From Bacillus sp. AFS059628 (lineage in GTDB: Bacteria; Bacillota; Bacilli; Bacillales; Bacillaceae_G), in NCBI RefSeq assembly GCF_002571225.1, contig NZ_NVEC01000029.1, forward strand, positions 1-55,865: DNA of 55,865 bases, in the 5' to 3' direction. The translations under genes and the position numbers were made by a program. Below are positions 1 to 55,865 of this stretch, piece by piece (the first letter of the stretch is position 1; the number at the start of each line of letters is the position of its first letter). The notes beneath the pieces are model-generated. The model was not told the DNA's origin, made no database searches, and worked only from the letters and a program-made list of their open reading frames with translations.

Positions 1-16
1 GCAGCAGTAGAATGAG

Positions 17-175
17 ATAAAGTGAAACTTTAATCAGTGGGGGTTTTCTTCATCCCCCACTGATTATCATCCCTCACCAATCGGACTTTTAGGGACAGCC
101 CGACCCCCACCTAAATTCTTTGCTTTTCCTGAATTTTGAGGGTGGGGGTCTTACTGCCCGTTAAAGCGGGATAAA
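17..175 (+). repeat. bcr-like repeat, full-length copy 1
   Basis: A 159-bp unit that starts and ends with ATAAA (17-21 and 171-175), which looks like a 5-bp target duplication. It contains two strong hairpins: CAGTGGGGG pairing with CCCCCACTG near the left end, and GACCCCCACC (about 101-110) pairing with GGTGGGGGTC (141-150), followed by CCCG/CGGG near the right end. The same sequence recurs at 55753 (cut by the window end) and, internally deleted, at 49966. It resembles the bcr1-type mobile repeats described in the B. cereus group; the family name is from memory, the repetition and the duplication are seen directly. Confidence 0.85.
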
Positions 176-306
176 ATGAATTTTCGCTCTATATAACATA
201 TATTAATATTTATGAGGTTGTATTATAAAAATTAAAAATATACTAATACTAGTTTGATTAAAGTTACCTAAAATTCTACTATCAAAATGAAACAATACTT
301 TTTATG
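176..306. other. AT-rich intergenic stretch
   Basis: About 130 bp of very AT-rich sequence between the repeat and the end of the membrane-protein gene. No reading frame with a ribosome binding site and no clear terminator was seen. Confidence 0.5.
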
Positions 307-798
307 CTACATAGTTATTGCAATTCCTGCCAAAAATAAACTTACGATTGCTAAAAATTTTGTGCCGACTATAGCCCCTCTTAAATGAAACTTATAATCT
401 TTATATCCCTTCATGCCTTCTGTAGTAGGAATAACAACAAATCTTGGGGTAATCCAGCAAAAGATTAGCCAATCCAGTATAAACAAATCTACTACATTAA
501 AAATCATTAAAATACCAAAAGCATGTATATAGGCATCAATATATAATAATTTTTCATGTTTATGTAATATATATGTAGAAACGAAAGGAGTACCGAAAAG
601 AATAGCATTATATGCAATGTTAAAGTAAATCGTTTGCTTTTTTTCATGAATCGATTTTGGAAACACTAACTTTTGAATATCTTTTGGATACTCAGTTAAC
701 GAAAGACGAGGATTATAATATAAAGATCCTAAAATCAATACAGATAATACAATAGACATAATGACACCAACGTATATCATTTGCTCAAATGGATTCAT
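307..798 (-). CDS. Four-helix membrane protein of unknown function
   Basis: This 163-residue protein has about four hydrophobic segments (roughly residues 6-28, 58-80, 92-115 and 143-162), with a charged stretch after the first (PRLSLTEYPKDIQK). It has no signal-peptide cleavage site and no catalytic motif that I recognise. The ATG at 798 follows a weak GGTG ribosome binding site. It stands alone beside the bcr-like repeat and is transcribed divergently from the VOC gene. I do not recognise the family; small integral membrane proteins of this sort are common in the B. cereus group. Function unknown. Confidence 0.7.
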   Translation of the reverse strand: MNPFEQMIYVGVIMSIVLSVLILGSLYYNPRLSLTEYPKDIQKLVFPKSIHEKKQTIYFNIAYNAILFGTPFVSTYILHKHEKLLYIDAYIHAFGILMIFNVVDLFILDWLIFCWITPRFVVIPTTEGMKGYKDYKFHLRGAIVGTKFLAIVSLFLAGIAITM

Positions 799-977
799 AT
801 GCTACATTCACCTTTTTCTTTAATTACTATGTTGCTCCTTTACTTAATTACACATTGTATGCTCATAAATAACCAAAAATTAATACCACCTTTAACGCCC
901 GATCAAAGTTCTTGCAATGCAAAAACAATTTTTATAAAGTGAAAGCCTAATTAGTTAAGTTAGGATTGGTGAAAACT

Positions 978-1358
978 ATGAAAATAGAACATATCGCAAT
1001 ATGGGTAAATGATTTAGAATTAATGTGTTCTTTTTATACGAAGTACTTTAATGGTAAAGCGAATTCTTTATATCATAATAAAGCAAAACAATTTGAATCT
1101 TATTTTATTACGTTCGAATCTGGTGCAAGACTTGAAATTATGCGTAAAAAAGGTATAGAAAAAGAGCCTAACCCCAACATAACTGGCTATGCTCATATGG
1201 CTTTCTCTGTCGGTAGTGAAGAACATGTAAATGAATTAACTACAAAATTAAAAAATGATGGTTATCCTTTATTAAATGGACCACGTTTCACTGGAGATGG
1301 CTATTACGAAAGTGTGATAAGCGATCCTGAAGGTAATCAAATTGAAATTACGATTTAA
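978..1358 (+). CDS. VOC family protein (glyoxalase/dioxygenase fold)
   Basis: A 126-residue single-domain protein beginning [14 protein letters not shown], the usual first beta strand of a vicinal-oxygen-chelate fold. It ends [10 protein letters not shown], the usual last strand with the metal-ligand Glu. The conserved His near the N-terminus (IEHIAIW), the central GYAHMAFSV and the C-terminal Glu fit a metal site like that of lactoylglutathione-lyase-like proteins. The ATG at 978 has GGTG six bases upstream; an in-frame TTG at 966 is possible but would place this site inside the gene. The substrate cannot be told: the superfamily includes glyoxalases, fosfomycin-resistance enzymes and dioxygenases. 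Confidence 0.85.
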
Positions 1359-1410
1359 TTTATCTTTTTTCTGAAGAACAAATGAAAATTAGTTTGGAGG
1401 AATATATTAC

Positions 1411-1560
1411 ATTAAGGAATGGCAAATTATTTTCATAAATGGTGTTCATGATGATTATGAATGTTGGCAAGCTGGTGTTCAATGTGAGAATTGGCTTGTT
1501 GTTACTGCACCTTGTAATGATATCTTCACTTGCATTCCCGATGAATTTAATAAAAAATAG
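1411..1560 (+). pseudogene. Small conserved-looking reading frame with no normal start codon
   Basis: A 49-codon frame (IKEWQIIFINGVHDDYECWQ onward) ends at 1560 directly in a terminator. It is preceded by a good GGAGG (1396-1400) at ten-base spacing, but the codon at the expected start is ATT. No ATG, GTG or TTG exists between the upstream in-frame stop (1390-1392) and the body. The sequence is rich in Trp and Cys and looks like real protein. Either ATT is used as a rare start, as in infC, or an ATG has mutated and the gene is dead. The overlapping ATG frame at 1382-1438 is only 18 codons. Confidence 0.45.
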
Positions 1561-1590
1561 CTAATGGCATATTCCCATTAGCTATTTTTT
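1552..1590. terminator. Bidirectional intrinsic terminator
   Basis: Near-perfect hairpin, AAAAAATAGCTAATGG pairing with CCATTAGCTATTTTTT around a short loop, with T runs on both strands. It serves the small rightward frame and the converging DUF2332 gene. Confidence 0.85.
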
Positions 1591-1604
1591 ATTTTGAAGA
1601 AATA

Positions 1605-2651
1605 TTAACAAAGCGTTTCCTTCCCAAGCTTCCACCTAAACCATCTCCCATGTCCTTCTGTTTCCCCAACCGTTTCACGATATTCGTTTCCGTTAATATA
1701 ATAATCAATATGAAGGTCACGATCCCACATGTTGTTATATAGGTGTAATACATCACGTTTTGCACCGATTTCTTGTATTTGTTTTTCTAATTTATGTTTT
1801 ACTTGTTCAGGTATTTGATTTGCGACGTGTGTATGGAAAATACAGATTATAGCATCTTCCCTTATTTGTTCAATAATAGATGGCAATAGCTCTACACCGT
1901 CGCCTTCTATTAATTGAACGGATTCATTTTTCACTAAAGATGCTGCTTGGTCAAACATTTCAAGTCTTTCTTTATGTTCTGGCCAAATGAGTGAACGTAG
2001 CCATAAATAATCTTCATCACTATGTAAATCATTCACATGTAAGTCCAGTCCAATTCTTTCTACGACAGATGGGCTTTCTTTTAGAAAATGTGGCACATTC
2101 TCCCCTCTTATTTCAGAAGTTACATGCACATTTGAATTTATATTTCCGTACATTTCATCCGTTCCGTACGAATAACGATATTGGTCCCAGAACAGTTGTA
2201 ATCCAGAGCTTGTCCCAATTTCAATTAACGCTAACGGCTTTTTCACTTTATTAAATATGTAACAAAAACTTGGGTATAAGTACGCACATCGCCTTACTTC
2301 ATTCGTTTGAACGAGTTTCGTTTGTAATAAAGTAATGATTTCTTCTCGGTACGTTTTACAGAAATCCTTAAAATGATCAAAAGCTTGGTCTAAATCGGTA
2401 TTAGCATTTTCAACTAAGCTACTATAATACGTTTTTACATGATGTTCTTTCCCTGTTAGTAATAAATAATGTACGGCTCCTAATAGTAAGTTTGGGACTG
2501 GTTGACCTGCTTGAGCATAGGAAGATAGTGTAAGTACTTCCTCATCTTCAGCAATTTGTATTGATAAGTATTCATATAAGTCACTTGACCCTTTACATTC
2601 CTTTATTGAAAAATTTCGAAATAAGTTTGCGATTTGTTCTTGTGTACGCAT
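1605..2651 (-). CDS. DUF2332 family protein
   Basis: A 348-residue cytoplasmic protein that fits the DUF2332 family. It has an N-terminal helical part with SSYAQAGQPVPNLLLGAVHY (about residues 43-62) and a central IEIGTSSGLQL (about 143-153), reminiscent of the glycine-rich SAM-binding loop of methyltransferases. It also has LRSLIWPEH (about 218-226) and a C-terminal WFRWKLG. The family is widespread in bacilli and actinobacteria but has no established activity; a methyltransferase-like fold is inference from the glycine loop. The start ATG at 2651 follows AGGAGGG. It is monocistronic and converges on a shared terminator. Confidence 0.85.
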   Translation of the reverse strand: MRTQEQIANLFRNFSIKECKGSSDLYEYLSIQIAEDEEVLTLSSYAQAGQPVPNLLLGAVHYLLLTGKEHHVKTYYSSLVENANTDLDQAFDHFKDFCKTYREEIITLLQTKLVQTNEVRRCAYLYPSFCYIFNKVKKPLALIEIGTSSGLQLFWDQYRYSYGTDEMYGNINSNVHVTSEIRGENVPHFLKESPSVVERIGLDLHVNDLHSDEDYLWLRSLIWPEHKERLEMFDQAASLVKNESVQLIEGDGVELLPSIIEQIREDAIICIFHTHVANQIPEQVKHKLEKQIQEIGAKRDVLHLYNNMWDRDLHIDYYINGNEYRETVGETEGHGRWFRWKLGKETLC

Positions 2652-2890
2652 TGGTATCCCTCCTTTTTAACATCACAGAATAATCTTACTATTTAAAGAA
2701 CAAAAATTCCATAAAAAGGTATCCATTCTACCCACTTTCGTATACGTAAGCTTTTTCGGGATAATTTCAAACTGTATTTTTTTTCTATTTATCAGCTTAA
2801 AAGAGCTTGTTAAATAAGATTTTTGGCGAATAAAACGTTAAATAGTTTAAAATTATCAGATAACACTAGATATTTTAGTCTATTAATTAT

Positions 2891-3032
2891 TATAATAGAG
2901 TATGAGATGGTTATATAATTGAGACAAAAAAGGTAAATACCTAGGTGGGGCCTAGGCGGTGTTTTCATTTTACGGCTTAGACATAGAAAACACCTACTCT
3001 TTTTTGCCAATATAGGGGATGGAGAGATTATC
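2891..3032 (+). promoter_or_regulatory. mqo promoter and leader with terminator-like hairpin
   Basis: TATAAT-like hexamers lie at 2891 and 2914. Downstream come two CCTAGG palindromes (2939-2956) separated by TGGGG, then GGTGTTTTC (2958-2966) pairing perfectly with GAAAACACC (2986-2994), followed by TACTCTTTTTT. The hairpin plus T run looks like an intrinsic terminator about 30 bases before the mqo ribosome binding site (GGAGAG), so it could attenuate mqo or end a short leader RNA. The upstream 2652-2890 is AT-rich with nothing else recognised. The leader class is unknown to me. Confidence 0.5.
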
Positions 3033-4535
3033 ATGAGCAACATGCAGCAAAAAACAGACGTTATCTTAATTGGTGCAGGAATTATGAGTGCAACGTTAGG
3101 CTCATTACTAAAAGAATTAGCACCTGAATGGGAAATTAAAGTTTTTGAAAAACTCGCAAGTGCCGGGGAAGAAAGCTCTAACGAATGGAACAATGCAGGT
3201 ACAGGGCATTCTGCGCTATGCGAACTGAACTATACTTCCGAAAAATCTGACGGATCTATAGATATTAGTAAGGCTGTAAAAGTGAATGAGCAATTCCAGC
3301 TTTCAAGACAATTTTGGGCATATCTTGTAAAAAGTAAATTAATTCGTAATCCACAAGATTTCATTATGCCTCTACCTCATATGAGTTTAGTACAAGGTGA
3401 AAAAAATGTTGAGTTTCTAAAAAACCGTTTTGAAGCGCTTTCAAAAAATCCGCTGTTTCAAGGTATGGAATTTTCCGATACTCCTGAAACATTAAAAAAA
3501 TGGCTTCCACTCATTATGGAAGGACGTACATCTAACGAACCAATGGCAGCAACGAAGATTGACTCTGGAACAGATGTTAACTTCGGTGCATTAACTCGTA
3601 TGTTGTTTGATTACTTACAAACAAAAAATGTCGAGCTAAACTACAAACATAGTGTCGAAAATATTAAACGCACGAAGAATGGTTTGTGGGAAGTAAAAGT
3701 ACACGATATGAATAGTGGTAAAATTGAGCATCATACTGCAAAATTCGTCTTTATCGGCGGCGGTGGCGGGAGTCTACCTCTGCTGCAAAAGACTGGTATC
3801 CCTGAATCAAAACATATTGGTGGATTCCCAGTAAGTGGACTATTTATGGTATGTAAAAACCAAAAAGTTATCGAGCAACATCATGCAAAAGTATATGGTA
3901 AAGCTAAAGTTGGCGCTCCGCCAATGTCTGTTCCTCACCTTGATACGAGATATATAGACAATAAAAAAGCTTTACTATTTGGACCGTTCGCAGGGTTCTC
4001 TCCTAAGTTCTTAAAAACTGGCTCAAACCTTGACTTAATTGGTTCTGTAAAACCGAATAACGTCTTAACGATGTTAGCTGCTGGTGTAAAAGAAATGGGA
4101 TTAACAAAATACTTAATTCAGCAAGTTATGTTATCACATGAAAAACGTATGGAAGAATTACGCGAATTCATTCCGAACGCGAAAAGCGAAGATTGGGATA
4201 TTGTAGTTGCTGGGCAACGTGTACAAGTAATTAAAGATACTGATGCTGGCGGTAAAGGTACACTTCAATTCGGTACTGAAGTTGTTAGTGCGGCTGATGG
4301 ATCAATTGCTGCATTACTTGGCGCATCACCAGGTGCTTCTACTGCTGTTCACGTCATGCTTGAAGTATTAGAAAAATGTTTCCCAAGCCGCATGGTAGAA
4401 TGGGAAGGAAAAATAAAAGAAATGATCCCTTCTTACGGCATTTCACTAACAGAAAACCCAAGATTATTCCAAGATCTTCACACTTCTACAGGTCGTACGC
4501 TTGGATTAAATGAAAAAGAAACAGTTCATAACTAA
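3033..4535 (+). CDS. mqo: Malate:quinone oxidoreductase
   Basis: A 500-residue FAD-dependent peripheral membrane enzyme that oxidises malate to oxaloacetate and passes electrons to quinone, an NAD-independent TCA/respiratory step. The N-terminal [20 protein letters not shown] (about 10-29) is the dinucleotide-binding motif, followed by [27 protein letters not shown], the hallmark MQO block. The C-terminal part has [11 protein letters not shown] and [10 protein letters not shown]. Length matches MQO proteins. ATG at 3033 follows GGAGAG. It is monocistronic, with an unusual leader upstream and a strong terminator downstream. Identification is firm. Confidence 0.97.
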
Positions 4536-21299: not shown

Positions 21300-21560
21300 A
21301 AAGAGCAAAATAAAAATGACCGCTTCGCCCTTAATAAAATAAAAAGGACGAAACGGTCATTGTTCCGCGGTACCACCTTAATTGATATACATAGATATCC
21401 ACTTGGTGCCTATAACGCAGGCGAACGCCTAAACTTTCATTTAAGACTCAGGGATAGGTTCGATATATTCTATACGAGGAATCTTTCAGCCGGTGAATTC
21501 CACTCTCTTTCGCAAGAAGACATATGTACTATTTCCCTTCAACGATTTTCGGTTTAATTT
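21300..21560 (-). promoter_or_regulatory. Proline T-box leader of proBA
   Basis: On the minus strand the region holds a Stem I with GAGAGTGGAATTCACCGG and GCTGAAAGATTCC elements. A specifier-loop candidate GAACCUAU places CCU (Pro, complement of 21456-21458). The T-box core GGTGGTACCGCGGAAC is the complement of 21361-21376. A terminator stem, AATGACCGTTTCGTCC against GGGCGAAGCGGTCATTTTTATTTT, lies at about 21308-21360. Uncharged tRNA-Pro would stabilise the antiterminator. T-box control of proBA is established in Bacillus; the codon assignment is my reading. Confidence 0.9.
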
Positions 21561-47901: not shown

Positions 47902-49398
47902 ATGTGTAAAAATTCAATTTCTATTATTATCCCCATACAACATAAAATAAAAAATTTACCTAGAATTTTGGAAGCATGTAAACAACTACAGCCTTTAGAA
48001 ATTATCCTTACTATTAACGGATATACTCAGGATTCAATTGAGAGTGCAGATTCCTACAATTGTGAAATTATTCCACTAGAAGAACCGATAGAATCTACTA
48101 ATCTTTATGTAATTGGCGCAAAAAAAGCAAAGGGGCAGTACCTCTTATTTTTAGATGAAAATTACATGATTGACTCCTTCTCACTTATACAATTTCTTCA
48201 ACCATTACGAAATGGATCGGCTGACGTCGTATTAAATAATTTAGATGAATTTTTTTATCAAAAACAACAGCCCCATTTAGCAATGATTTGGCAACAAGTT
48301 ACAAATCATTTTTTTCATCACCCGGATTTAAATATTAACTCCTTATTATTCCCTCCCTATGCAATGACAAAAGAAGTACTTGAGGTAATTAATCCAGATA
48401 ATTTATCAAATCCAATATTGGCCCAAATGAAAATTATTAAACATAAATTTCGAATTTGCGATCAATTCAACATTTCTATCCCTCAAGTTCCCTCTTTTCC
48501 TTCAACTCAACTCATTCATTATCATCTTGAAGCCATTGCAAATTGGCTCAATATAGAGCAAAATCCAAGAGGAAACTTTACCGACAATAATCGAAAGCGT
48601 GATATTATTTTAGGGCTTCAAAACGGGGAACAAAAATCCATTCCAAAAATAATTACAGGTAAAGAGTTTTATTCGAATACTTATGGAGAGCAACAATTAT
48701 CAGTTATCATCCCTGTTCAAAATGAAGAAAAAACGATAGAATCTGTCATTTTTGAGGTACAGAAATTAAAACCTTTTGAAATTATCGTTATTGTTAATGG
48801 ATCAACAGATAAAACAGAGGAATTGGCTAAGGGTTGCGGTGCAACAGTTATTAGTTACGAAGAAGCACTTGGAAATGATACAGGACGTGCTGTTGGTGCC
48901 TTTTTTGCCAAAGGTGACATATTATTATTTATAGATGGAGATTTCTTAATTTCTAGTTATGAATTATTACCATTTGTACAATCTATTCAAAATGGCACGG
49001 ACTTAGCTTTAAATAAACTAGAGTACTACTATAAGTATCGTCTCCCCTATTCTATCGTCACCGCATGTAAATATGCTGTCAACTTAGCATGTAATCGAAA
49101 AGATTTAGGTATGGGATCCACAATTGCTGTCCCTCATGCTTTTAGTCGAAAATGCATTCATACAATTGGATTTGATTCACTTCTTTCACCAACCTTAAGT
49201 CAAGTGAAAACAATTTTAGCAGGCTTTCATGTACAAAATATCCATTCTGTCGACGTTGATAAATTGAATCGTGTTCGACCAGAAAAACACTTCACTGAGA
49301 AAGGTTCCCTTTCATTAGCAACACAACAAATCATTGGTGATCATATAGAAGCAATTTCTTATCTCATCGAACATAAAAGAGGTAAAGAGTGCTTTTAA
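47902..49398 (+). CDS. Tandem GT2 glycosyltransferase (two domains)
   Basis: A 498-residue protein made of two homologous GT-A halves. Half 1 (about 4-235) has SIIIPIQHK and ILTINGYTQDS, but at the DxD position it reads LDENYM (85-87). Half 2 (about 264-498) has VIIPVQNEEKT, VIVNGSTDKT and an intact IDGDF (345-347). The linker RGNFTDNNRKRDII (about 223-236) is shared with the two paralogues further on. No membrane helix or signal peptide. Only half 2 looks catalytic. ATG at 47902 follows AAAGGAGG. Donor and acceptor unknown. Confidence 0.88.
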   Translation: MCKNSISIIIPIQHKIKNLPRILEACKQLQPLEIILTINGYTQDSIESADSYNCEIIPLEEPIESTNLYVIGAKKAKGQYLLFLDENYMIDSFSLIQFLQPLRNGSADVVLNNLDEFFYQKQQPHLAMIWQQVTNHFFHHPDLNINSLLFPPYAMTKEVLEVINPDNLSNPILAQMKIIKHKFRICDQFNISIPQVPSFPSTQLIHYHLEAIANWLNIEQNPRGNFTDNNRKRDIILGLQNGEQKSIPKIITGKEFYSNTYGEQQLSVIIPVQNEEKTIESVIFEVQKLKPFEIIVIVNGSTDKTEELAKGCGATVISYEEALGNDTGRAVGAFFAKGDILLFIDGDFLISSYELLPFVQSIQNGTDLALNKLEYYYKYRLPYSIVTACKYAVNLACNRKDLGMGSTIAVPHAFSRKCIHTIGFDSLLSPTLSQVKTILAGFHVQNIHSVDVDKLNRVRPEKHFTEKGSLSLATQQIIGDHIEAISYLIEHKRGKECF

Positions 49399-49454
49399 TT
49401 ATACATCCTGTCTACTAAATAATATATTATCTCATTTTTAATATATGACAGAAT

Positions 49455-49483
49455 AAAAAAGATGGGTTGTAACCATCTTTTTT
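49455..49483. terminator. Bidirectional terminator
   Basis: AAAAAAGATGG pairs with CCATCTTTTTT around seven bases, between the converging GT2 gene and the small Cys protein gene. Confidence 0.88.
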
Positions 49484-49541
49484 ATTTTTACATTAGATCA
49501 AAAGAAAAGTAGCAGGTAGGCTTTTCATTTCTGTATCTTTC

Positions 49542-49784
49542 TTAAGAAGTTTGAAAAGAGAGGCTTGTTAATGAAGAGTCAACACTTAAATCATCTTTTA
49601 GTACAATTGAGAAACATGCAACTAATGGTAAAGTAATAACAATTGATCCACTAGGACTAATTACAATAGTAGGACTTGTCCCACATGTGCCTCCACAATC
49701 GACTACTGCATCAATTCCACTACCAGGGGTAATTGTAATTTTAAGACACACATCTAAACAAACATTATTCGTAGTACATGCCAT
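49542..49784 (-). CDS. Small Cys-containing protein A
   Basis: An 80-residue protein (MACTTNNVCLDVCLKITITP onward) with Cys at 3, 9, 13, 30, 34 and 57, a Gly/Thr/Ser-rich beta-prone middle and an ending LKDDLSVDSSLTSLSFQTS. There is no signal peptide or membrane helix. ATG at 49784 follows AAAGGAGGGAGAG. A disrupted paralogue lies 130 bp upstream (50014-50151). I do not recognise the family for certain; assembled sporulation-surface proteins (Ena/DUF3992-like) and peptide substrates of the flanking glycosyltransferases are possibilities without proof. Confidence 0.75.
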   Translation of the reverse strand: MACTTNNVCLDVCLKITITPGSGIDAVVDCGGTCGTSPTIVISPSGSIVITLPLVACFSIVLKDDLSVDSSLTSLSFQTS

Positions 49785-49910
49785 AACTCTCCCTCCTTTC
49801 TTTTAACAATATATGCAATTTATTGAATTCGGACACGACTCTCCTACTAAATTTTATAAAATAGATGCTATTTTACTATTCGTTTTATAGGTAATTAACG
49901 TTTGATTAAA

Positions 49911-50151
49911 CTATCTAAATCCAAAAAAACTCATATCATCTTTTACTGAAATAGAAATACATGCGATAAAGTGAAACTTTAATCAGTGGGGGTTTTCTTC
50001 ATCCCCCATTGATTTAAAGTGGGATAAATGGTATTACATTAAAATCAGATGAAAATTCATCATCGCATCTTACAAATATTTCTGCCCCGCCATTTGGATA
50101 AACTTTAGTTTCTAAACAAATATTAAAACAACTTTTATTGATGCAAGACAA
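49911..50151 (-). pseudogene. Small Cys-containing protein B, disrupted by a bcr-like element
   Basis: From TTG at 50151 (GGAGG seven bases upstream) the frame codes MSCINKSCFNICLETKVYP onward, but stops at 50014 inside the inserted 63-bp repeat (45 residues). Deleting the insert with one ATAAA copy joins it in frame to codons continuing to TAG at 49911. The restored 60-residue protein has NVIPFIACISISVKDDMS, matching VITLPLVACFSIVLKDDLS of protein A. The Cys pattern is also shared. So this is a paralogue inactivated or truncated by insertion. Confidence 0.85.
49966..50028 (+). repeat. bcr-like repeat, internally deleted copy 2
   Basis: A 63-bp element bounded by ATAAA at both ends (49966-49970 and 50024-50028). 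It is identical to copy 1 in its first about 45 bases apart from one change, then jumps directly to the last about 15 bases; the middle hairpin region is missing. It interrupts the small gene on the minus strand. Confidence 0.88.
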
Positions 50152-50252
50152 GGCATTCCCTCCTTTCTTGTACCTAACATTAATTTATATAGACATAAAA
50201 ATATCGTTACTTCTTTATTTACTCTTCACCTTATATACTTAAAATAAAGTGA

Positions 50253-50298
50253 AATAAAAAAAGTAAAAACCTCTTCATGTATTTGAAGAAGTTTTCAC
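50253..50298 (-). terminator. Terminator after the hydrolase-GT2 gene
   Basis: GTGAAAACTTCTTCA and TGAAGAGGTTTTTAC pair on the minus strand, followed by TTTTTTTATT. It ends the long leftward transcript. Confidence 0.82.
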
Positions 50299-50408
50299 TT
50301 ACAGCTGAACCAAAAGAGTAACTTTTTTAGAATTTTGTTTTCATCCCAATATTCAACTTACACTCTATCCGTTGCTATTTCACCCTTATTAGTAAAGTAG
50401 CTTCCAAA

Positions 50409-52799
50409 TTAAAATAAATCTTTAAAATCCCTATTCTTCAGTAAATAAGAAAGCCCTTCTACATGATCGCCGGTAATTCTCAATACAGCTGGTGGATGTC
50501 CTACTGTTGCAAAGTGTTCATTTGGACGAATACGATTTGGTTTCATTACATCTACAAAATGGACACATTCGACTTTATACCCTTCTAATATTGCCTTTAC
50601 TTGTGCAACACACGCTGTGTGAAGAGTGTCCCACCCGATTCCCTCTAAACATTTTCTACTAATAGCATGGGGAACAGCAATTGTAGATCCTACCCCTAAA
50701 TCTTTACGGTTACAAGCAATATTCAACATATATTTATATAAATTTACAATATATAGAGGAAATCTAAGATTTAAATTTAAATCGTTTAAAACCATATCAA
50801 CACCATCCGCAACAGCCTGTGTTAACGGATGAAGATCTTTTGCTGGAATAGCAAAATCAGCATCAATAAAGAGAAGTATATCCCCTGTGGCTTCTTGTGC
50901 ACCAATTGCCCGTCCTACATCATGCCCTACTCTTTCTTCATAAACAATTACTGTTGCCCCTGATTGCTTAGCGATTACTTCTGTCTGATCTGTTGACCCA
51001 TTAATGACAACAATTATTTCTTTCGGTTCAATTTTTCTTGCCTCAAGGATAACTTCTTTAATTGTCGCTTCTTCATTTTGTGCTGGTATAACAATTGATA
51101 ACTGTTTTCCATTATAAATTGATGAATTCATACCCCATCCTTTATAGAAACGTGAATAACTCTTTTGTTTTTTTAGTTGCTCTATAATGTCTCTTTTTCT
51201 TCCTCCATCTGTATAGTTCCCTCTATTATCTTTTCGTTGTAACCAACTTTCCAAAGCTTTTACATTCTCTTTAATCTCACATACTTCTAATTTAGTTAAT
51301 TCATTTTTATAGAAAGAGGTTTTGTTTGCGGGTATATTATTCAAGGAGGTGTTAGTGATAGCTGACGAGGATTGTAGTCGCCACCCTTTCTCAATAAGAG
51401 TTATTTGAGATAGAACCGGGGTTTGCAAAGTGTCATATCCAATGTCTTCAATTGCTTTTTTTATAATGGCATATGGCATAGATAACATCGAATCATATTT
51501 TAAATCCATACGTCCCAATACATCGTTTACTATTTTTCTATACACCATAGCAATACTTGGCCATTCCACACTTATCTTTTCAAAACATACGGAGTCTATG
51601 TTATTTAAGATTACATCCTGTTCCTTTTTTAGTATCGGTTCTAAAAATCGTTCTAGTTCTACCGAAAAGATAACATCTTCTCCATCTAAAAATAAGACTA
51701 CATCTCCATTGGCGATTTTCGCCCCATGAACAGGTGCTTTCCGTTTATTTTTCTCTTCTATAACAATAACGTTACTTTCAACAAATGTAGGTATAGCTTG
51801 TATTGCACTCATTCTATCATCAGCCACAATAATAATTTCTAGTGGTTTTATATGCTGCACTTTGTTTAAAATTTGATTCAATTTCGATTTTTCTTCTCCT
51901 AAAACTATAACGACTGACAGCCCCACTTCTTTTTGTTCTTCTTTTATAATTTGGTTAGGCTTTACTTTTTTTATATATTCAATTGTTTCACTCTTACCTA
52001 CAGCTGCATGCCCTGCTTTTTTATCGAAATATAAGTCTATTACAATTTGATTTATTTCCGTATCTTTATCCAGTTGTTCTAATTCAGAAATGAATGGTAG
52101 TAAATGATTTTGCACATCAAATTCACATGTAAAATTTTGCAAAAAATAAATATTCGGTACATATTTAATGTTATTAAAAAATTTCACAACATTAATTCTT
52201 TCCCCAAATTTCTCCTCAACTTCTTCTCTTGATAAACCTGGATAAGACAAATCGAAAACTAGATTTATTGGTACAGGTATCCATTTTAATAAATTTGTTT
52301 GAGGATTATTAATTAAAGCTGTGGAGCCCTTAACGAATCCAGCTAAAATTAAAGACATAAACCCTCCCCCGGAACTACCATAAAACAACACATTTTTCGA
52401 ATCAATTTTTAACTTTGTAAATAATATTTTTAAAATATTTGCTATATCTTGCAAGTAAAATCTATCTAACTTCCCTTGTCCCCAACCTAAAGACAATTTT
52501 CCAAGATATAATGTAGGATCATTATAATATATAACAGTATCTTCAAATTCATCCATCCATGAATGCCGATGAAAAATAGGTGGACCAATTGGCTGTTCTT
52601 GAAATCCACCTGCTCCGGATCCAAAAACAATAGTATTAGAAGCATTAGGCTTAATACGAATTAAAAATTCATACGTTACTTTATCCCAATCAATCTTGAG
52701 TATAAACGGTTCTGTAGTTTGAAAATCCATTTGCCATAATTCTTCATATGAAATGTTAATTTTCTTGTACTGGTCTAACAGTTTAATCACCCTTTCCAT
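50409..52799 (-). CDS. Hydrolase-GT2-GT2 fusion protein
   Basis: A 796-residue protein in three parts. Residues 1-285 are an alpha/beta-hydrolase-like domain with a nucleophile elbow YGSSGGGF (Ser143) and a late KKAGHAAVGKSE (His264), reminiscent of Asp2-type accessory proteins. Then come two GT-A halves: the first (about 292-535) has LDGED at the DxD position (372-375), the second (about 566-796) has an intact IDADF (646-648). The linker RGNYTDGGRKRDII and FYKGWGMNSSIYNGKQLS are shared with the next gene. Its start overlaps the upstream gene by 17 bases, without a good ribosome binding site of its own. Confidence 0.85.
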   Translation of the reverse strand: MERVIKLLDQYKKINISYEELWQMDFQTTEPFILKIDWDKVTYEFLIRIKPNASNTIVFGSGAGGFQEQPIGPPIFHRHSWMDEFEDTVIYYNDPTLYLGKLSLGWGQGKLDRFYLQDIANILKILFTKLKIDSKNVLFYGSSGGGFMSLILAGFVKGSTALINNPQTNLLKWIPVPINLVFDLSYPGLSREEVEEKFGERINVVKFFNNIKYVPNIYFLQNFTCEFDVQNHLLPFISELEQLDKDTEINQIVIDLYFDKKAGHAAVGKSETIEYIKKVKPNQIIKEEQKEVGLSVVIVLGEEKSKLNQILNKVQHIKPLEIIIVADDRMSAIQAIPTFVESNVIVIEEKNKRKAPVHGAKIANGDVVLFLDGEDVIFSVELERFLEPILKKEQDVILNNIDSVCFEKISVEWPSIAMVYRKIVNDVLGRMDLKYDSMLSMPYAIIKKAIEDIGYDTLQTPVLSQITLIEKGWRLQSSSAITNTSLNNIPANKTSFYKNELTKLEVCEIKENVKALESWLQRKDNRGNYTDGGRKRDIIEQLKKQKSYSRFYKGWGMNSSIYNGKQLSIVIPAQNEEATIKEVILEARKIEPKEIIVVINGSTDQTEVIAKQSGATVIVYEERVGHDVGRAIGAQEATGDILLFIDADFAIPAKDLHPLTQAVADGVDMVLNDLNLNLRFPLYIVNLYKYMLNIACNRKDLGVGSTIAVPHAISRKCLEGIGWDTLHTACVAQVKAILEGYKVECVHFVDVMKPNRIRPNEHFATVGHPPAVLRITGDHVEGLSYLLKNRDFKDLF

Positions 52800-54300
52800 C
52801 TATTTTGAGATGTTCTATTAAGTAAGAGAGAGCTTCAACGTGATCTCCAATTATTCTTAATACTGCTGGAGGATGTCCATTGTGACTTACATTCTCCATT
52901 AAACGTATTCTATTCGGTTTTACAACATCAACGTAATGTACACATTCTACTCTATACCCTTGTAATATAGCTTTTACTTGTGCAAGACTAGGGCATAGTA
53001 AACTTTCCCACCCTATTGCATCTAAGCATGATCTACTCATAGCATGTGGAATGGCTACTAATGAGCCATTACTTAATTCTGGTCGATTATATGCTAAATT
53101 AAGCATATATTTTACGACGTCTACAACATAAAACGGAGGATGTAACATCGGATTCAAATCATTTAATGCGATGTCTACACCAGCTGAAACTGCTTTTGTA
53201 AAGTGATGCAAATTACTTCCTGAAACGCTAAAATCACCATCAATAAATAAAAGAATATCTCCTGTAGCTTCAAGCGCTCCAATAGCACGTCCAACATTAT
53301 GACCAAGTCGTTCGTTATATTCAATAATAGTAGCACCAAGTCTTTTAGCGATACTGGCCGTTTGATCTGTCGAACCATTTACAACGACAATTATTTCTAG
53401 CGGTTCTATTTTTCTTGTCTCAAGTATTACTTGTTCTATAGTCTCTTCTTCATTTTGCACTGGTATAATGACAGAAAGTTGTTTCCCGTCATAAATTGAA
53501 GAATGCATTCCCCAACCTCGGTGATAAAAAGGATATTGCTTGCTTTTACCTAATCTTTGAATAATATCTCTTCTTTTTCCTGCATCAGTAAACCCTACTC
53601 TTCTTCCCTTTTTCTCTATCCATTTAGAAATACCGATTAAATATTTTTCCACTTTCTCTTTTTCATTCTCTAACAATTCTTTTTTAACTAAATACCCTTC
53701 TTCTTGTAACGTCTCATCTCTAGATAACGTTTTTATTGCATATTGATCGTTAATCCGCCAGCCCTGATTCACTATGTTCATATGAGCTAGAACGATATTT
53801 TTCATATAATCTAAGCCGATATTTACCACTACTTCTTTCGTAAGTGCATATGGTAATGAAAGTATTGAATTACTTTTTAAATCTGGTCGACTTAAAATTT
53901 CATTTAATATTTTTCTCCAAACAATATCCATATTTGGACATTTACCAACTTCTACAAATTTATCTATTTTGTTTAATACTACATCAGCCTGATTTGTAAC
54001 AACTGGTTCAATAAATTTCTTCATCTCATTTGTAGATAATGAAAAATTACTATCTACAAATAACAAAACATCTCCTTTTGCTGCCTTTACAGAAGCTTCA
54101 TACCCATCATAATACGTACTATATTTATCCATCAAAACAATATGGCATTTATGTTTCTTTGCTATTTCATACAAATTACTTCTATCGTTAGGAACGAAAA
54201 TTATAATTTCAAGAGGATTTAGCTTCCATATAGATTGAATTGACTCTTCTAATATTTGCTCTCTTTCACTATACAAAATAATAACCGTTAACGATTTCAT
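52783..54300 (-). CDS. Tandem GT2 glycosyltransferase (two domains)
   Basis: A 505-residue protein with the same two-half design: half 1 (about 1-235) has VDSNF (83-85) where DxD is expected; half 2 (about 275-505) has VIIPVQNEEET, VVVNGSTDQT and IDGDF (354-356). Linker RRVGFTDAGKRRDII. No signal peptide or membrane helix. ATG at 54300 follows GGGGG. It is translationally coupled to the hydrolase fusion downstream. Likely cytoplasmic glycosyltransferase; the first half may have become a binding or structural domain. Confidence 0.88.
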   Translation of the reverse strand: MKSLTVIILYSEREQILEESIQSIWKLNPLEIIIFVPNDRSNLYEIAKKHKCHIVLMDKYSTYYDGYEASVKAAKGDVLLFVDSNFSLSTNEMKKFIEPVVTNQADVVLNKIDKFVEVGKCPNMDIVWRKILNEILSRPDLKSNSILSLPYALTKEVVVNIGLDYMKNIVLAHMNIVNQGWRINDQYAIKTLSRDETLQEEGYLVKKELLENEKEKVEKYLIGISKWIEKKGRRVGFTDAGKRRDIIQRLGKSKQYPFYHRGWGMHSSIYDGKQLSVIIPVQNEEETIEQVILETRKIEPLEIIVVVNGSTDQTASIAKRLGATIIEYNERLGHNVGRAIGALEATGDILLFIDGDFSVSGSNLHHFTKAVSAGVDIALNDLNPMLHPPFYVVDVVKYMLNLAYNRPELSNGSLVAIPHAMSRSCLDAIGWESLLCPSLAQVKAILQGYRVECVHYVDVVKPNRIRLMENVSHNGHPPAVLRIIGDHVEALSYLIEHLKIDGKGD

Positions 54301-55752: not shown

Positions 55753-55865
55753 ATAAAGTGAAACTTTAATCAGTGGGGATTTTCTTCATCCCCCACTGAT
55801 TATCATCCCTCACCAATCGGACTTTTAGGGGCAGCCCGACCCCCACCTAAATTCTTTGCTTTCGC
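55753..55865 (+). repeat. bcr-like repeat copy 3, cut by the window end
   Basis: It begins ATAAA (55753-55757), then matches copy 1 over more than 100 bases with a few changes and runs off the window within the central hairpin region. It lies beyond the propeller gene and marks the right side of the island. The stretch 55547-55752 is AT-rich with no gene. Confidence 0.88.

What the first reader, a model, noticed from the sequence alone, without database searches (positions are those of the whole stretch)
49911..50151. A gene-disrupting bcr-like insertion resolved to the base
Removing 49966-50028 while keeping one ATAAA rejoins two parts of a frame on the minus strand. It restores a 60-residue protein that matches the intact neighbour (IPFIACISISVKDD vs LPLVACFSIVLKDD), including cysteine positions. 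The target duplication is ATAAA/TTTAT. The insertion is a natural demonstration of element boundaries, and it probably killed or truncated a paralogue in this strain.
Basis: seen in the sequence. Interest (0 to 1): 0.8.

Follow-up and report, generated by a model that had tools for sequence, protein, structure and literature searches.

The report
Shrunken mobile repeat splits small gene
A 58-base, internally shortened copy of a known Bacillus mobile repeat (bcr1) lies inside a small gene of unknown function and cuts it in two; the event itself is ordinary, but tracing the repeat showed relatives of it outside the Bacillus cereus group and copies that have lost their middles.

Summary
Window 49966-50028 is a bcr1 repeat that matches the full copy at 17-175 except for two substitutions and one 96-base internal deletion. 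It interrupts a minus-strand ORF. The two pieces, tested apart, each match the intact neighbour 49542-49784 (scores 53 and 43; 0 of 5000 shuffles each; other frames at chance). The surviving ORF is 45 codons.

Corrections. "Target duplication" is doubtful: among 58 further copies 8 have unequal ends, none as a matching variant pair. The 63-base form is probably a remnant: one phage site holds 158-, 107-110- and 99-101-base forms. Bcr1-like repeats also occur elsewhere: 99 of 397 Bacillales genomes match, and Anoxybacillus calidus by name. The mobilising enzyme was not found.

The parts
49966..50028 (-). internally deleted bcr1 copy with an ATAAA at each end (58 bases plus one pentamer); one hairpin kept
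   Evidence: hairpin
50029..50151 (-). upstream piece of the interrupted small ORF (TTG start, GGAGG seven bases upstream); the ORF now runs on into the element and stops at 50014 (45 aa)
   Evidence: match to neighbour
49911..49964 (-). downstream piece, cut off from its start, still similar to the neighbour near its C-terminus
49542..49784 (-). intact neighbouring paralogue, 80 aa, several cysteines, no family above cut-off
17..175 (-). full-length bcr1 copy in the same window (reference for the deletion)
55753..55865 (-). third bcr1 copy, cut by the window end
50409..52799 (-). glycosyltransferase family 2 protein, 796 aa, upstream on the same strand
47902..49398 (+). glycosyltransferase family 2 protein, 498 aa, on the other side

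Best explanation
A bcr1 element entered an ATAAA (TTTAT on the coding strand) site inside the shorter of two tandem small paralogues. Shown: likeness to the window's full bcr1 copy, its ends, the single internal deletion, the two conserved ORF pieces, and, on other copies, the rule that empty sites keep one ATAAA. Inferred, likely: the gene is dead or makes a 45-residue product without the conserved ACISISVKDD stretch. Inferred, more likely than not: a full element of about 154 bases arrived and later lost 96 bases in place, leaving the first hairpin and the last 15 bases. Inferred, weaker: bcr1 moves by single-strand transfer as IS200/IS605 elements do (their mechanism is recalled), going in beside an NTTAT site and bringing its own ATAAA at the other end, so that the two pentamers are not a copied target.
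For: Identity and deletion. Paralogue. Ends: at a phage site 4 of 31 contigs are empty with exactly one ATAAA. A hairpin-keeping short copy of similar build (L280 in G190) is absent with one ATAAA left in G081 and, by overlapping matches, in G398. In-place shrinking: forms of 158, 107-110 and 99-101 bases at one phage site; short forms by pattern in 16 of 397 genomes, none for the reversed pattern. Against duplication: 0 matching variant pairs among the 8 unequal copies of 58; site 19 with its empty sister.
Against: No natural empty or intact version of this very site was found. The two short copies with usable sister sites (54-base site 5 of G081; 62-base L280 of G190) stand where sisters are empty, which equally fits arrival in short form. 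None of the Y1 transposase, TnpB or IscB loci scanned was seen to lie between bcr1 ends, and a genome with 37 matches of the element (G308) had no Y1 and no TnpB match. The 50 copies with ATAAA on both sides cannot tell the two models apart, and later mutation could explain the 8 unequal ones. Site 19 has two extra bases on the left that neither model predicts.
Confidence: 0.8

Rival explanations
1. The element arrived already short: the 58-base hairpin form is itself mobile, and no in-place deletion followed.
For: A hairpin-keeping short copy in G190 and a 54-base copy in G081 lie at sites empty in sister genomes; G081 has 13 and G251 has 8 short copies by pattern.
Against: A phage site shows in-place shrinking. 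The common short class (46 of the 51 listed places match 52-55 bases) looks as if two GTGGGGGT stretches of the full element had been joined, and in G081, G251 and G396 the short copies share spellings with the longer copies read from those genomes, as repeated local deletions would; in G172 the one longer copy read is spelled differently.
Confidence: 0.35
2. An ordinary MITE moved by a cut-and-paste transposase that duplicates the 5-base target ATAAA.
For: ATAAA on both sides here and in 50 of 58 copies; one pentamer in empty sites.
Against: None of the 8 unequal copies has the same variant on both sides; site 19 keeps ATAAC only on the right, as in its empty sister.
Confidence: 0.25
3. The interrupted ORF is not a gene; the similarity to the neighbour is chance.
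For: No relative of the neighbour with E below 0.001 in 397 genomes, none in plasmids or viral contigs; TTG start.
Against: Both pieces match the neighbour independently and in order, 0 of 5000 shuffles each; the same GGAGG spacing before both starts.
Confidence: 0.05

Closest known systems
bcr1 (Bacillus cereus repeat 1; group A with bcr2 and bcr3)
   Same: Both ends, the first hairpin and the TTTAT/ATAAA motif; described as MITE-like (passages of PMC6542083, PMC3446304 and PMC3733652).
   Different: This copy lacks 96 inner bases and lies in a reading frame. A published passage calls bcr elements specific to the B. cereus group (PMC8725734), which the matches found here contradict.
IS200/IS605-derived non-autonomous elements (PATE-like)
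   Same: Hairpins near the ends, a fixed pentamer at the target, no clear target duplication (family traits recalled).
   Different: No transposase gene lying between these ends was found, so this is likeness of behaviour, not membership.
REP repeats with RAYT genes
   Same: Short hairpin repeats that a tyrosine transposase may move (PMC3733652, passages and section 16).
   Different: bcr1 is a longer, two-ended element; by my reading of match ranges RAYT-like genes are not in every bcr1-rich genome, for example not in G081.

Membership tests
bcr1 | sequence identity with a full copy at both ends | tested here: met
bcr1 | TTTAT/ATAAA at both ends, one left at empty sites | tested here: met
   present here; the empty-site rule was shown on other copies, not at this site
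bcr1 | complete inner region (a trait of complete copies, not needed in a deleted one) | tested here: not met
   63 bases with both pentamers against 159; hence filed as a deleted copy
bcr1 | reported restriction to the B. cereus group (a claim about the family, not about this copy) | tested here: not met
   matches in 99 of 397 Bacillales genomes, Anoxybacillus calidus, one Pseudalkalibacillus plasmid at 75.3% over the whole query
IS200/IS605 non-autonomous element | an autonomous relative with the same ends and a Y1 transposase | tested here: inconclusive
   not seen in the loci scanned; not every match was fetched and some loci are cut by contig ends
IS200/IS605 non-autonomous element | no target duplication | tested here: inconclusive
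   0 of 8 matching variant pairs, one informative empty site
MITE with target duplication | same variant pentamer on both sides when the target is not ATAAA | tested here: inconclusive
   not seen in 8 unequal copies of 58, but later mutation is possible
HEARO / IscB-associated RNA | Rfam covariance match | tested here: not met
   no HEARO match in window 1-300 up to E 10 nor in ten loci up to E 1

The most novel reading that the evidence does not exclude
bcr1 is not a B. cereus speciality but one arm of a Bacillaceae-wide family of hairpin-ended elements that move by single-strand transfer beside TTTAT, repeatedly lose their middles by deletion between internal repeats, and in at least one genus have captured the segment catalogued as Bacillaceae-1 RNA, perhaps a piece of rRNA leader.
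Probability: 0.4. Interest if true: 0.6.

Novelty: new member of a known kind. Interest (0 to 1): 0.35.

Why it matters
The locus is a clean case of a bcr1 element breaking a coding sequence and gives its ends to the base. More generally, the natural occupied and empty sites collected here offer a test of how bcr1 moves, and its wider distribution opens other hosts in which its mover could be sought.

Tried and rejected
Own genome: none held. Homologues of the locus in plasmids and phages: none. The glycosyltransferase in genome contigs gave one locus, Anoxybacillus calidus. Hypotheses dropped or left open: that the right end belongs to TnpB elements (48 loci at TnpB matches: 30 and 18; bcr1 ends absent, fragmentary, or part of separate bcr1-like copies; an AAGTTTCACTTTAA about 1 kb beyond one TnpB gene of G172 was not followed up); that it is an IscB-type element (one IscB locus in 17 genomes, other ends); HEARO by Rfam. 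Some matches over all 63 query bases first looked like the same short form; the three read (L022, L038, L024) have other sequence at the far end, and the two from G081 lie in elements of the 222-base kind. The empty state of the ATAAT copy (L348) could not be judged because its flanks did not align. In one search, loci L345 and L346 gave no copy under the end patterns, and the extra row of L329 shared its right end; these are outside the count of 58. At least two pairs among the 58 are the same site in sister genomes (L291 and L297, L295 and L298). The 58 were chosen because they matched a longer copy or the element's start well. Paper searches that gave nothing for the question.

Full report
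What is there. Window 49966-50028 carries ATAAA at both ends and, between them, the start and first hairpin of a bcr1 element followed by its last bases. A gapped alignment with the full copy at 17-175 of the same window needs one 96-base deletion and two substitutions. A third copy at 55753 is cut by the window end. The 23-base start pattern is found three times, against a mean of 0.00 in 100 shuffles. The remaining hairpin folds better than 198 of 200 shuffles as DNA (z -3.1) and better than 195 of 200 as RNA (z -2.4). That the host belongs to the B. cereus group is inferred from bcr1 and recalled gene content; no call proves it.

The broken ORF. On the minus strand a TTG-started ORF at 50151 runs into the element and stops at 50014 after 45 residues. 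The piece beyond the element, 49911-49964, was tested on its own. Both pieces match the intact 80-residue neighbour: local BLOSUM62 scores 53 and 43, 0 of 5000 residue shuffles each, and 0 of 3000 DNA shuffles for the downstream flank; the other five frames of that flank were reached by 691 to 4476 of 5000 shuffles. Both ORFs have GGAGG seven bases before the start codon. Element plus one pentamer is 58 bases, not a multiple of three. The neighbour and the upstream piece have no Pfam match, and no NCBIfam match over cut-off; the neighbour has none in plasmids or viral contigs. In 397 Bacillales genomes it has six weak matches, E 0.001 to 0.008, five of them with stops inside.

Could the site be checked in relatives? 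Not directly. No genome is held for the window. A 7.1-kb stretch of the locus finds in 397 Bacillales genomes, the repeat itself and stretches under about 130 bases apart, nothing above 74% identity, and the scan of genome contigs returned one Anoxybacillus locus.

Boundary rule from natural sites. (a) A bcr1 site in contigs of IMG/VR: 31 contigs share the left flank; 4 are empty with exactly one ATAAA, 2 carry 158 bases, 17 carry 107-110 and 8 carry 99-101, counted from the first base of the left ATAAA to the right flank. Of 24 comparisons of 10 copies with sisters, 6 leave exactly five bases (site 3 in G081; site 5 in G398, G041 and G190; site 22 in G081; site 23 in G398); 9 leave between -1 and 6 (sites 0, 19, 20, 23, 24; site 20 with 141 unaligned bases on one side); 9 give 24, 24, 62, -25, 543, -153, -153, 881 and 881 and say nothing clear (sites 0, 12, 13, 19, 20, 22). 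(c) The G190 copy L280, 62 bases with its hairpin and built like the window's copy, is missing in G081 with one ATAAA left and in G398 by matches that overlap in five bases; G041 has other sequence there.

Duplication or own end? In 58 further copies, chosen for good matches and including at least two pairs of the same site in sisters, 50 have ATAAA on both sides and 8 differ; in none of the 8 do both sides share a variant. At site 19 of G041 the right pentamer is ATAAC, as in the empty site of G398, while the left is ATAAA with two extra bases before it. This fits an element that brings its own ATAAA and goes in beside an NTTAT site (coding strand of the window gene), as IS200/IS605 elements are known to do (recalled). 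It is one site and a small table, and later mutation could explain part of it.

Shortened forms. By pattern, short copies occur in 16 of 397 genomes, 54 in all, none for the reversed pattern. Of 51 listed, 46 match 52-55 bases and look as if two GTGGGGGT stretches of the full element had been joined; three keep the first hairpin like the window's copy (G190:C95, G229:C23, G357:C1); two are other forms. The phage site shows that shrinking happens in place. The two short copies with usable sister sites stand where sisters are empty, so arrival in short form is not excluded. I rate in-place loss about 0.6.

What moves it? Unknown. Loci at matches of Y1 transposase (PF01797, 13 of 14 genomes), TnpB (PF07282, 14 of 17) and IscB (PF14239, 1 of 17) were scanned for bcr1 ends; ends turned up only as fragments or as parts of separate bcr1-like copies. 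G308, with 37 matches of the element, had no Y1 and no TnpB match. Not every match was fetched, and loci near contig ends are cut.

Distribution. 99 of 397 genomes of the order match the full bcr1 at E up to 0.001 (two candidates scored per genome). By name: Anoxybacillus calidus, 14 matches, 13 of them within the first 48 bases, and a Pseudalkalibacillus hwajinpoensis plasmid, 75.3% over the whole query. The same plasmid search found no B. cereus-group record, although a published passage reports bcr1 on plasmids of that group, which again suggests that the group is missing from the collections.

Literature. Seen as passages only: PMC6542083 (TTTAT motif, 'site-specific recombination-like', 11 to 130 copies), PMC3446304 (bcr1-3 MITE-like, often transcribed), PMC4227781 (IStrons), PMC8725734 ('specific to B. 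cereus group'), PMC2267715 (Bcr1 as a stem-loop family), PMC3733652 (Bcr1 among MITEs; also its section 16). The bcr1 paper of 2004 is not held; those of 2007 and 2011 were not looked up. So I cannot say whether shortened copies, copies in genes or relatives elsewhere are already described there. Searches for bcr1 with repeat element, TTTAT, IS605, and MITE or internal deletion listed no paper whose title, abstract start or passages read named a mover of bcr1.

Verdict. The finding is right as an observation and mostly right as an interpretation; as biology it is an ordinary gene interruption by a known repeat. What it led to, a wider family with shrinking copies and doubtful target duplication, is of moderate interest.

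Noticed in passing
A second 16S gene there (L225) has no such match. The RNA family may be an rRNA-leader segment carried by the repeat.
   Followed up: partly
L001/G001 and plasmid NZ_CP156675.1: bcr1-like repeats outside the B. cereus group: 14 matches in Anoxybacillus calidus, 13 of them within the first 48 bases, and a 160-base match at 75.3% on a Pseudalkalibacillus hwajinpoensis plasmid.
   Followed up: partly
window 47902-54300: Two small cysteine-bearing ORFs sit among three long genes; two are glycosyltransferase family 2 by Pfam and the third (52783-54300) looks alike by eye. A similar gene cluster is in Anoxybacillus calidus (43% identity), where I saw no such small ORF by eye.
   Followed up: partly
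window 21341-21551: T-box leader (RF00230) on the minus strand upstream of genes that look like proB and proA (gene names recalled).
   Followed up: no
L061 499-553: A short bcr1-like copy lies about 1 kb from a RAYT-like transposase gene in G190 (the label RAYT is recalled); single case.
   Followed up: no
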